Source: Candidatus Sulfopaludibacter sp. SbA3
GTDB lineage: Bacteria; Acidobacteriota; Terriglobia; Bryobacterales; Bryobacteraceae
Length of the DNA: 64,000 nt
Direction: 5' to 3'
Assembly: GCA_945890485.1 (NCBI GenBank)
Contig: CAMDCN010000001.1
Coordinates: 496,001 to 560,000, forward strand
Part shown: positions 24,867 to 30,024 of the stretch, piece by piece
How the letters are laid out: each line of letters starts with the position of its first letter
Numbering within the stretch: position 1 is the stretch's first letter
The notes under the pieces: generated by a model
Databases searched by the model: none
What the model was told of the DNA's origin: nothing
What the model saw: only the letters and a program-made list of their open reading frames with translations
Translations under genes and position numbers: made by a program

Positions 24867-27494
<2,628 letters not shown>

Positions 27495-27517
27495 CGGTAT
27501 CCTGGTCCCGGAGAACT

Positions 27518-27679
27518 GAAGGCTCCAAGCTTTCGTCCATCGCCAAGCTGTTCGCAGCCGAAGCTTGGACTCTCCGGGGTTACCCCGGGGATTTGACCGC
27601 ACTACGCAACACTCGTGCGGGAACCTAACTGCGCTTCACGCAGACCTGTTCCCGCCCTGCCCGGCACGTTGGAGCCTTC
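27518..27679 (+). ncRNA. Candidate retron msr-msd non-coding RNA
   Basis: A 162-nt region bounded by a perfect 11-bp inverted repeat, a1 at 27518-27528 and a2 at 27669-27679. Just inside a1 is an AGC (27528-27530) whose G27529 is the candidate branching guanosine. The msr part has two hairpins: 27543-27549 with 27562-27568, and a 9-bp TTA-looped stem 27571-27579 with 27583-27591 that includes one G-T pair. The msd part is one long hairpin: 27614-27618 with 27664-27668, 27619-27624 with 27648-27653, and an inner 5-bp stem 27629-27633 with 27639-27643. It ends exactly at a2. The reverse transcriptase ATG follows 14 nt later. This is the canonical retron layout. msr and msd limits are inferred from pairing only. 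Confidence 0.85.
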
Positions 27680-27693
27680 TCCACCAATTTGTT

Positions 27694-28854
27694 ATGTTGG
27701 CCCATCGCATCCTGGTTCAGTCGCTGCTCGCGGGGCCTCTTACCCGCGAAGAATGCCGGGTGCGTGCAATGGAGACCTTAGGCGCTGCGAATCAGTGGCT
27801 CGATCCCTTTATCGATCGATTCGTGGACAAATTCTCCACCCGCCCGCGGATACAGACGGCGATGGAATTTCTGTGGGCCGATACCGCCGTTCCCCGCCGG
27901 CTTTCCGTCGTCAATTGCCTGCCGTCTCCTCCGCAATCGCTTCCGGTGTGGCCGACTCCGAGACTGCCAGCGCTCACCGACGTGGCTGATTTCCTGTGCA
28001 TCACGGTTGGCGAACTGACGTGGTTCACGAGCCTCCGCCGGCCGTCCCACTATCACGAGCAATGGATTCCGAAGCGCTCCGGCGGCATGCGGCTACTCGC
28101 CGTGCCCAAACCCCGGCTTAAGGCCCTCCAGCGGGTGATTCTTGCTGAACTGCTTTCGGCCATCCCTACCCATTCAGCCGCCCATGGATTCTGCCCAGGC
28201 CGGTCGATCCACACCTTCGTCGCCCCGCACCTCAGGCCGCCGGCGCTGTTGCGTCTCGACCTGGCGGACTTCTTTCCCTCGATCCGGTTTCCGCGGGTCG
28301 CCGCATTTTTCCGCACCGCCGGCTATCCGGAATCGGTCGCCGATGCTCTTGCCGCTCTCTGCACGCACGACGGTTCCCTGCCCCAGGGCGCGCCAACCTC
28401 GCCCGCGCTCGCCAATGCTCTCGCCTACCGGCTGGACTGCCGGCTCACCGGACTGGCCCGGTCAGCCGGTTTGCAATACACTCGTTACGCCGACGATTTG
28501 GCGTTTTCCGGCGCGGCGTTAACGCGCACCTTTCTTCCTCACGTCGCAGCAATCGTCCTGGAGGAGGGGTTCACGCCCAACTACCGGAAGACGCGGCTGA
28601 TGCTTCCAGCGCAACGGCAACACCTCACAGGACTGACACTCAACGAGAAGCCCAACCTTGCCCGCCCGGTCTACGACGCGCTCAAGGCCGTCCTTACGAA
28701 CTGCCTACGCCATGGGCCCGCGACCCAAAACCACGAAGGTCATCCCGCGTTTCGCGAACACTTGCAAGGCCGGGTGGCGCACGCGCGGGCCGTCAATCCC
28801 GGCAAGGGAGCACGTCTGCAGGCGCTGTTTGATGCGATTATTTGGCCGTCGTAG
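27694..28854 (+). CDS. Retron-type reverse transcriptase
   Basis: Reverse transcriptase expected to make branched msDNA from the adjacent ncRNA. I start at the ATG at 27694 (386 residues); the frame is open to 27565, but that part lies in the ncRNA hairpins. An alpha-helical N-terminal extension (about residues 1-110) precedes the RT core: WIPKRSGGMRLLAVPKP (RT1), HGFCPGRSIH (from 164), LDLADFFPSI with Asp189, LPQGAPTSPALANAL, and the catalytic YADD at 265-268. The thumb has LTGLTLN (LTG at 311-313), matching the VTG of retron RTs. The NAxxH motif is FVAPH (175-179), keeping only the His. The overall pattern resembles myxobacterial Mx162-type enzymes. It overlaps a converging nuclease gene by 17 bp. 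Confidence 0.92.
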   Translation: MLAHRILVQSLLAGPLTREECRVRAMETLGAANQWLDPFIDRFVDKFSTRPRIQTAMEFLWADTAVPRRLSVVNCLPSPPQSLPVWPTPRLPALTDVADFLCITVGELTWFTSLRRPSHYHEQWIPKRSGGMRLLAVPKPRLKALQRVILAELLSAIPTHSAAHGFCPGRSIHTFVAPHLRPPALLRLDLADFFPSIRFPRVAAFFRTAGYPESVADALAALCTHDGSLPQGAPTSPALANALAYRLDCRLTGLARSAGLQYTRYADDLAFSGAALTRTFLPHVAAIVLEEGFTPNYRKTRLMLPAQRQHLTGLTLNEKPNLARPVYDALKAVLTNCLRHGPATQNHEGHPAFREHLQGRVAHARAVNPGKGARLQALFDAIIWPS

Positions 28855-29392
28855 GGAAGATCGAGTTCACCGCCAACGTCCCGCCGCCGAATAGCGCTAA
28901 GGGGATTTCTTGGTCGCGGTGATAGAAGGCGAAGGAGCCGCCCGGTTTGGCCACGCGGACGGTCTCCCGTTCCGAGTCGACGACCCAGAACTCGGAGCAT
29001 CCCGTCGCCAGGCACAGCTCTTCCCGTTCATACATCTCACTAGCGGAGTTCGAAGGGCTGAGCACTTCGATGATCAGGTCCGGAGAGCCGGCAATATTGT
29101 CTTCAGGATCGGCAGCGGCAAATCGATCTTGCCGTACAAATGCGACGTCAGCAGCTCGCAACTCATGTTCCGGCAATGGCCTGAAAGCCAGTTCCGTGTC
29201 GAGCCAGCCGCGCGACTCCGCAGCCGCTTCCAGCAATTTGAAGAGCCGCCGCTGTATGATGGCATGTTTCAGTTTTGGCCGTGTCATCGGCACCACCTCG
29301 CCCCGCTGCAGTTCAAAGTCAAAGTCCCCAGCCGCCTCCGGCAATGCCTGGAACTCTGCCACCGTCATCCGTTTTGTCGCAGCGACCACCAT
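28838..29392 (-). CDS. Uma2-family (DUF820) putative endonuclease
   Basis: A 184-residue protein of the PD-(D/E)XK-fold Uma2 family. The core SPDLIIEVLSPSNS carries the acidic metal ligands, followed by a LCLATGCSEFWVVD segment. EPEFAFRP-like TELAFRPLPEHELRAADVAFV precedes it. The ATG has a strong ribosome binding site (aaggaggt). Uma2 genes are highly expanded in Acidobacteria and Cyanobacteria and have no settled function. The 3' end overlaps the retron RT by 17 bp in convergent orientation, so it is not in the retron operon. Confidence 0.9.
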   Translation of the reverse strand: MVVAATKRMTVAEFQALPEAAGDFDFELQRGEVVPMTRPKLKHAIIQRRLFKLLEAAAESRGWLDTELAFRPLPEHELRAADVAFVRQDRFAAADPEDNIAGSPDLIIEVLSPSNSASEMYEREELCLATGCSEFWVVDSERETVRVAKPGGSFAFYHRDQEIPLALFGGGTLAVNSIFPTTAK

Positions 29393-29403
29393 GCCTTACC
29401 TCC

Positions 29404-30024
29404 TTACTTCTTGACGCTGATTTCCTTGAAGAACACCGTGTCTCTGGCGCCGTGATTCTGGATGCCGATGTATCCCTTGCGCGCCCGCGGCCCCCGCACC
29501 GGCTCAAACCACATCTTGCGCTCCGGCACCGTCTGGTCGCCCTTAAACTCATTCACCAGCTTGCCGTTCAACTTCACGCGGGTCACATCACCCTTCAACT
29601 CCACTTCCATCGTGTTCCATTGGCCAATCGGCTTCATGTTCCGCGCCGTCACTTTGCTCAACGAATACAGCGCGCCGGTGCAGTGCCAATCGTCGCCGGT
29701 GGCGTCAATCTGCACCTCATAGCCATTGTGTACGCCGTACCACGCATCTCGCGGCTTCTCCGGCATCCGAATGTACAAGCCCGAGTTTGCCCCTTTCTCG
29801 GTCGGTGTCTTGAATACGACGCGAATGGTCGCGTTTTCAAAAGCCTCATTCTCGTAATACAGGAGGCCCATGCCACCTGTCGTTTTCAAGGCCCCGTCTT
29901 CCACGACGAAGTTGCCCCAGCCGACCTGTTTCCAGCCAGTCAAATCCTTGCCGTTCCAGATCTTCTCCCAGCCGGCCGCCGGAAGCAATGCCGCGGCCAT
30001 CACAAAAATGAGTAAGGTTCTCAC
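29404..30024 (-). CDS. DUF1080 (3-keto-disaccharide hydrolase-like) secreted protein
   Basis: A 206-residue protein with a signal peptide (MRTLLIFVMAAALLPAAG) and one DUF1080 jelly-roll domain. It starts with WEKIWNGKDLTGWKQ, contains NSGLYIRMPEKP and GYEVQID, and ends with GYIGIQNHGARDTVFFKEI. DUF1080 proteins are concanavalin-like, and some act on glucosidic or 3-keto sugars. It lies 11 nt before the Uma2 gene and 9 nt after the permease gene, in a co-directional series with a TonB receptor, fitting carbohydrate use. Confidence 0.92.
   Translation of the reverse strand: MRTLLIFVMAAALLPAAGWEKIWNGKDLTGWKQVGWGNFVVEDGALKTTGGMGLLYYENEAFENATIRVVFKTPTEKGANSGLYIRMPEKPRDAWYGVHNGYEVQIDATGDDWHCTGALYSLSKVTARNMKPIGQWNTMEVELKGDVTRVKLNGKLVNEFKGDQTVPERKMWFEPVRGPRARKGYIGIQNHGARDTVFFKEISVKK

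What the first reader, a model, noticed from the sequence alone, without database searches (positions are those of the whole stretch)
27518..28854. Probable complete, undescribed acidobacterial retron
The sequence shows a perfect 11-bp inverted repeat (27518-27528 and 27669-27679). It encloses two short hairpins and one long stem-loop and ends 14 nt before the start of a reverse transcriptase. An AGC just inside the left repeat gives a candidate branch G (27529). This is the a1-msr-msd-a2-RT order of known retrons. The RT has YADD, LPQGAPTSP and a retron-like thumb LTG motif, and resembles from memory the myxobacterial Mx162-type RTs. Retrons are antiphage systems, and acidobacterial members are little studied.
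Basis: partly seen in the sequence, partly recalled or inferred. Interest (0 to 1): 0.93.

Follow-up and report, generated by a model that had tools for sequence, protein, structure and literature searches.

The report
Solitary retron in a soil bacterium
A soil bacterium of the Acidobacteriota carries a small genetic element that should make a branched RNA-DNA hybrid, and it belongs to a widespread branch of retrons in which no shared partner gene was found beside it, unlike the well-studied antiviral retrons.

Summary
In detail: a perfect 11-bp repeat encloses hairpins and ends 14 nt before a 386-aa reverse transcriptase (RT). It is a retron. The RT matches retron profiles and structures; the upstream RNA is a conserved family (28 of 30 predicted pairs change on both sides in 72 sequences), has a -10-like box just before it, and in 23 of 24 related genomes holding it lies beside this RT or a remnant. 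Corrections: the RT is not of the Mx65/Mx162 type but of a separate branch (99/98 support) that PADLOC files as RT_other/RT_outgroup, with its own RNA and altered NAXXH and VTG motifs. "Complete" in the tripartite sense is not supported: clustering of neighbours at 100 loci (20 unnamed, 80 named, at least 3 duplicates, some on short contigs) found no common partner, and the adjacent Uma2 gene is shared only within the genus. Lineage-specific partners are not excluded. The RT branch is already in a database and retrons without clear effectors are mentioned in print, so this is a new member of a known kind. What this branch does is open; msDNA and phage defence were not tested.

The parts
27498..27503 (+). 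-10-like box TATCCT, 4 nt after the acnA stop; probable promoter element of the retron transcript
   Evidence: A TANNNT hexamer starts within -22..+1 of the RNA model start in 65 of 72 family RNAs, against 11 of 72 in an equally wide stretch further upstream
27510..27689 (+). retron non-coding RNA (msr-msd), full-length match to covariance model R1
   Evidence: 118 bits, E 1.3e-30 in the window (the window is one of the 17 model sequences, so it matches by construction); covariation
27518..27528 (+). a1 repeat arm
   Evidence: perfect inverted repeat with 27669-27679; all 12 pairs of the family helix show changes on both sides
27529..27529 (+). predicted branch guanosine, first base after a1, in CCAAGC
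   Evidence: G in 68 of 72 family RNAs, AG in 65, AGC in 50; role inferred from known retrons
27535..27570 (+). variable msr hairpin
   Evidence: folds; poorly conserved
27572..27590 (+). conserved msr hairpin CTCCGGGGTTACCCCGGGG
   Evidence: 99.3% of cells paired in 72 sequences, 6 of 8 pairs with changes on both sides, 2 invariant
27617..27655 (+). long msd stem-loop, within the part predicted to be reverse transcribed (about 65-75 nt of DNA)
   Evidence: arms 27617-27633 and 27639-27655; covarying lower stem; the complementary DNA strand of 27596-27668 folds with z -3.4; DNA length inferred
27668..27668 (+). predicted first template base for reverse transcription, next to a2
   Evidence: G in 71 of 72 family RNAs; role inferred
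27669..27679 (+). a2 repeat arm
27694..28854 (+). retron reverse transcriptase, 386 aa, YADD; residues 1-62 a four-helix N-terminal domain, from about 94 the RT
   Evidence: Pfam RVT_1, retron profiles, AlphaFold2 mean pLDDT 93.1, nearest solved structures retron RTs
28838..29392 (-). convergent Uma2-family gene, neighbour shared only within the genus; probably not part of the retron
   Evidence: Pfam Uma2; orthologue beside the retron in G009 and beside a decayed copy in G001; tblastn found it in only 1 of 100 loci, that of G009

Best explanation
It is a retron of the branch that PADLOC calls RT_other/RT_outgroup. A promoter at the end of acnA starts an RNA at or just before a1. The arms a1 and a2 pair; the RT binds the msr hairpins and uses the 2'-OH of G27529 to prime a DNA copy of the msd that starts opposite 27668, giving a branched RNA-DNA molecule with about 65-75 nt of hairpin DNA. 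Shown: the anatomy, its conservation and covariation, the RT class, the linkage of RNA and RT, and the lack of a common neighbour gene in the loci examined. Inferred: branching, msDNA size and function. Most likely function: the RT-msDNA complex acts in phage defence or a similar stress response without a locally encoded, branch-wide effector, through the RT itself or a partner encoded elsewhere. The confidence below is for the retron reading; for the function part alone I would say about 0.5.
For: Retron profiles and structures. Covariation: 18 of 30 pairs compensated in 17 MAFFT-aligned RNAs; 28 of 30 in 72 model-aligned RNAs, 94.6% of cells paired against 36-52% when slid. RNA upstream of the RT in 76 of 80 named loci at E up to 1, 66 of 80 under 1e-5. 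RT in 25 and RNA in 24 of 201 related genomes, 20 shared, Fisher p 2.8e-19; 3 of the 4 RNA-only genomes hold an RT remnant or a contig-cut RT start. -10 box. RT dN/dS 0.16 against the G009 copy. No common neighbour.
Against: NAXXH is altered (N in 2 of 36, H in 36 of 36) and VTG is mostly LAG. No msDNA was seen. Defence has no direct support: of AcnA, Uma2 and the DUF1080 gene only Uma2 has a PADLOC match, a candidate family; no wider defence scan of the window was made. In 29 of 80 named loci a same-strand ORF of 80 aa or more starts within 120 nt downstream of the RT (mechanical ORFs), so lineage-specific partners are possible; five planctomycete loci share such a gene, and two neighbours of isolates match PADLOC models (a subtilase, 101 bits; NUDIX PDC-S07, 29 bits). 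Several copies are decayed (G001, G030, G118). The 72-RNA alignment is fitted to the model, which favours its structure.
Confidence: 0.9

Rival explanations
1. A tripartite retron whose effector is the convergent Uma2 gene at 28838-29392, gained together with RNA and RT between acnA and the DUF1080 gene.
For: Retron plus Uma2 lie between acnA and DUF1080 in the window and G009, and with a broken RT in G001; three genus members (G010, G016, G017) have acnA next to DUF1080 with neither. Uma2 matches the PADLOC candidate PDC-S03.
Against: Opposite strand, convergent; tblastn found it in 1 of 100 loci, that of G009 (one query, so distant Uma2 proteins could be missed); in G001 Uma2 has an open frame while the RT is broken; in G006 RT and the nearest Uma2 are on different contigs and no RT follows that Uma2.
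Confidence: 0.08
2. The effector function lies in the RT's own N-terminal four-helix domain (residues 1-62), making a one-protein retron.
For: The domain is present in the acidobacterial members aligned and weakly recognisable in Myxococcaceae and Paraburkholderia ones (23-27% identity), folds confidently, and no separate common partner was found.
Against: Weakly conserved (2 invariant of 113 columns); no significant match in Pfam, PDB sequences or PDB folds; in 39 of 80 named loci the tblastn match starts at residue 41 or later, so the domain is absent, too diverged or cut off there; N-terminal extensions of unknown function are known in Mx retron RTs (PMC6868368, passages seen).
Confidence: 0.15
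3. Not defence: a domesticated or selfish msDNA-making element with a regulatory or DNA-metabolism role.
For: Neighbours are mostly metabolic or unrelated genes and no common defence gene was found; a review says some retrons seem to lack clear effector association and may have other functions (PMC8867640, passages seen).
Against: Patchy presence (7 of 19 genus genomes with an RT match, one of them broken) and repeated decay and fast RT change also fit turnover of a defence gene.
Confidence: 0.3
4. A decayed or non-functional retron in this genome.
For: The window lineage lacks the 10-31 residue insert before LPQG seen in the other 34 of 36 rows of A4.
Against: RT full length with YADD, dN/dS 0.16, perfect a1/a2 stem and a -10-like box, unlike the G001 copy.
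Confidence: 0.05

Closest known systems
PADLOC RT_other / RT_outgroup retron RTs
   Same: Best two profiles for this RT (413 and 393 bits) and for the 7 other family RTs scanned
   Different: The profiles carry no stated effector or function; PADLOC's msr-msd models could not be compared here
Myxobacterial retrons Mx162 / Mx65 (PADLOC RT_XIII; the Mx labels of the fetched loci are recalled)
   Same: Retron RT with an extended N-terminus (for Mx RTs per PMC6868368), RNA upstream
   Different: Separate side of the tree (99/98); RT_XIII only third-best profile; model R1 gives nothing up to E 10 at L175, L176, L179 and L182, and only 3-9 bit fragments at L180
Retron-Eco1 (Ec86)
   Same: Nearest solved structure: Foldseek TM 0.62 by query length, 29% identity
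   Different: 7v9x, the top hit, is Ec86 with its effector; here no effector was found and there is an extra N-terminal domain

Membership tests
Retrons (general) | RT of the retron class with YADD core | tested here: met
   YADD in 36 of 36. NCBIfam retron models match below their curated cut-offs
Retrons (general) | Region X motif NAXXH (14 of 16 validated retron RTs per PMC6868368) | tested here: not met
   FVAPH here; first position N in 2 of 36, H in 36 of 36. Not decisive: that review says two validated RTs (Ec48, Mx65) also lack the N
Retrons (general) | Region Y motif VTG | tested here: inconclusive
   LTG here; in the family LAG 20 of 36, VTG 2 of 36, G in 36 of 36
Retrons (general) | a1/a2 inverted repeat enclosing msr and msd upstream of the RT | tested here: met
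Retrons (general) | Branch guanosine next to a1 in an AGC-like context | tested here: met
   sequence level only: G in 68 of 72, AGC in 50 of 72
Retrons (general) | Production of 2'-5' branched msDNA | not testable with these tools
   needs nucleic acid from cells
Tripartite antiphage retrons (Mestre types) | Type-specific effector beside or fused to the RT | tested here: not met
   no common neighbour at 100 loci; lineage-specific partners not excluded
Mx162/Mx65 group (RT_XIII) | RT_XIII best profile and same clade | tested here: not met
RT_other/RT_outgroup retrons | Best-scoring PADLOC profile | tested here: met

The most novel reading that the evidence does not exclude
A retron branch spread over at least six phyla (by record titles) works without any dedicated effector gene: RT plus msDNA, perhaps with the short N-terminal helical domain, is the whole system, so retrons are not inherently tripartite.
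Probability: 0.3. Interest if true: 0.75.

Novelty: new member of a known kind. Interest (0 to 1): 0.48.

Why it matters
Retrons are described as systems whose RT and msDNA hold back or trigger a toxic effector. A conserved retron branch with its own RNA and no common local effector is a clean test of whether msDNA can act alone or with partners encoded elsewhere. The covariance model and promoter box give exact coordinates for expression constructs, and the compact element may be a source of msDNA in high-G+C bacteria.

Tried and rejected
Mx162-type membership: rejected. Uma2 as effector: unlikely. Rfam: no match up to E 1 in 26000-30000. Viral contigs: 7 pattern matches, none a relative (a single-protein query, which finds close relatives only). 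Plasmids: 167 records match, all under 60% identity, 5 covering at least 80% of the query (40 listed as a spread; the best is Burkholderia pyrrocinia); phages: 40 records, none covering 80% (15 listed). Chance repeat. N-terminal domain identity: no result.

Trees: the quick tree (61 rows) held a wrong-frame ORF (L022), a group II intron RT (L185) and a mostly unfilled row (L077). Rooted on L185 it put the 12 other retron RTs as one starred group inside the family, which would make the family paraphyletic, but that root rests on very long branches. One search uses 43 of the 61 rows: those three and 15 further family rows were dropped, for speed; it shows a split, not a root. A count of region Y was taken at the wrong place and redone.

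Planctomycete neighbour: five loci (L094, L098, L122, L123, L124) share a gene 14-255 nt downstream on the same strand; two of the five were scanned and match nothing in Pfam or PADLOC.

Full report
What is there. The window lies in a 7.1-Mb genome (G000, 35 contigs). A member of its genus, G015, has an RT-bearing contig of the same length (253,221) as JAEUQC010000130.1, deposited as Bryobacterales bacterium, so the host is very probably an acidobacterium. Between acnA (24867-27494) and a convergent Uma2 gene (28838-29392) lies a 386-aa RT gene (27694-28854), preceded by an inverted repeat at 27518-27528/27669-27679. It is the only RVT_1 match in the genome.

The RT. Pfam gives RVT_1 only. NCBIfam gives retron St85, Ec67 and TIR retron models, all below their cut-offs (200, 194, 189 bits), far above the group II intron model (48 bits). 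PADLOC gives RT_other 413, RT_outgroup 393, RT_XIII 303 bits. AlphaFold2 on a 36-sequence alignment has mean pLDDT 93.1; the 18 best Foldseek matches in the PDB are retron RTs (Ec86, Eco2, Eco7/Ec78, a type IA retron, Ec83, Eco8), followed by a group II intron RT. Residues 1-62 form four helices without a significant known relative. In 39 of 80 named loci the tblastn match starts at residue 41 or later, so this domain is not shown to be branch-wide.

Branch. PADLOC scores separate RT_XIII members of Myxococcus/Pyxidicoccus (an Mx162-like, an Mx65-like and a third type; Mx names recalled) from members of this family in the same genera. In a careful tree of 43 rows, 31 family members and 12 other retron RTs are split by one branch with 99/98 support; the window, G009 and G006 copies group at 100/100. 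The root is not shown; see the quick tree in Tried and rejected.

The RNA. Upstream stretches of 17 sequences (the window and 16 relatives), aligned by MAFFT, gave an RNAalifold structure with 30 pairs, 18 of them compensated on both sides; the a1 arm changes from GAAGGCTCCAA to, for instance, AAGCGGGCATGCAA with pairing kept. Model R1, built from these 17, finds the RNA upstream of the RT in 76 of 80 named loci at E up to 1, 66 of them under 1e-5. In 73 the distance to the tblastn start is under 450 nt, in three (L102, L116, L125) 490-639 nt; two of the four misses (L067, L088) have their contig end there. In L130 a match on the other strand scores higher. I then aligned 72 RNAs (the window, 13 unnamed-genome loci, 58 of the 76 named hits; mostly weaker ones, and by oversight the strong hit L112, were left out): 94.6% of cells paired, 28 of 30 pairs with changes on both sides, 0 of 500 shuffles as high on any measure, slid versions at 36-52%. 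This alignment is fitted to the model; one search is not. At the Mx162-like, Mx65-like and third-type loci R1 gave nothing or 3-9 bit fragments.

Linkage and promoter. Over 201 related genomes the RT (E up to 1e-20) is in 25, the RNA (E up to 1e-3) in 24, one per genome, both in 20 (Fisher p 2.8e-19). RNA without an RT hit: G002 (RT start runs off the contig), G030 and G118 (RT remnants; G118's RNA is weak, 27 bits), G089 (none seen). RT without RNA: G008 and G100, whose RT lies at a contig start, and G042, G069, G090, whose matches are 38-39% identical and may be other RT types. A TANNNT hexamer lies just upstream in 65 of 72 RNAs against 11 of 72 in a control stretch; in the window it is TATCCT at 27498-27503.

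Partner genes. Clustering of flanking ORFs gave no family common to the window and the 20 unnamed-genome loci; the largest cluster covers 5 of 21, at varied distance. Among the 80 named loci the largest clusters cover 9 loci (1 within 1.5 kb) and 6 loci (3 within 1.5 kb); a five-locus planctomycete cluster directly downstream is the only close same-strand one of that size. Some contigs are short. In 29 of 80 a same-strand ORF starts within 120 nt downstream (mechanical ORFs). Of 10 neighbours from 8 isolates scanned in Pfam, 8 matched different families (subtilase, NnrU, beta-lactamase fold, FGGY kinase, chitinase, pentapeptide repeats, NUDIX, GntR/UTRA) and 2 none; of 4 of these scanned in PADLOC, the subtilase (101 bits) and the NUDIX protein (29 bits) matched candidate models. 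So no branch-wide effector was found; lineage-specific or distant ones are not excluded.

History at this site. The window and G009 have retron and Uma2 between acnA and DUF1080; G001 has the same with a broken RT, a weaker RNA (85 bits) and, by eye, CGTCCT in place of TATCCT; G010, G016 and G017 have acnA directly before DUF1080. RT identity between window and G009 is 64% while AcnA is 98%; RT dN/dS is 0.16 (synonymous sites near saturation), AcnA 0.016. The RT changes fast but under purifying selection.

Literature. Passages were seen of PMC6868368, PMC9252829, PMC8565338, PMC8867640, PMC8934634, PMC12548924, PMC12262390 and PMC13405049; nothing was read whole. [quoted passage not shown] Searches: retron + Mx162 + Acidobacteria found no paper; in the listings no title or abstract start describes acidobacterial retrons. 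Mestre et al. 2020 and the Khan census are not held, so whether this RNA has been described before is unknown.

Verdict. A well-supported retron of a branch known to a database but, as far as I could see, uncharacterised, and without a branch-wide local effector. The family-level picture (shared RNA, promoter box, no common partner) is the interesting part.

Noticed in passing
window 28360-28380 (RT residues 223-229): The window and G009 copies (and G006, seen, not in A4) lack a variable insert before LPQGAPTSP; the 34 other rows of the 36-row alignment A4 have 10-31 extra residues there.
   Followed up: partly
L173 1428-2337 (G001:C204): A broken retron copy at the orthologous site: RT in pieces with frame breaks, RNA weakened, -10-like box changed, Uma2 frame open.
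   Followed up: partly
L094, L098, L122, L123, L124, directly downstream of the RT: Five planctomycete loci share an uncharacterised same-strand gene of about 190-290 aa, without Pfam or PADLOC match in the two scanned; ordinary synteny or a subgroup partner.
   Followed up: partly
L069 (CALQCC020000047.1): A public MAG contig titled Bordetella parapertussis has the same length (25,536) as G041:C47, a member of the window's own bacterial family; the title looks wrong.
   Followed up: no
window 28838-29392: Uma2-family gene matching PADLOC candidate PDC-S03, present or absent together with the retron at this site in six genus members compared.
   Followed up: partly
L201 (G030) and L203 (G118): Retron RNAs followed only by RT remnants, further signs of decay.
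   Followed up: partly
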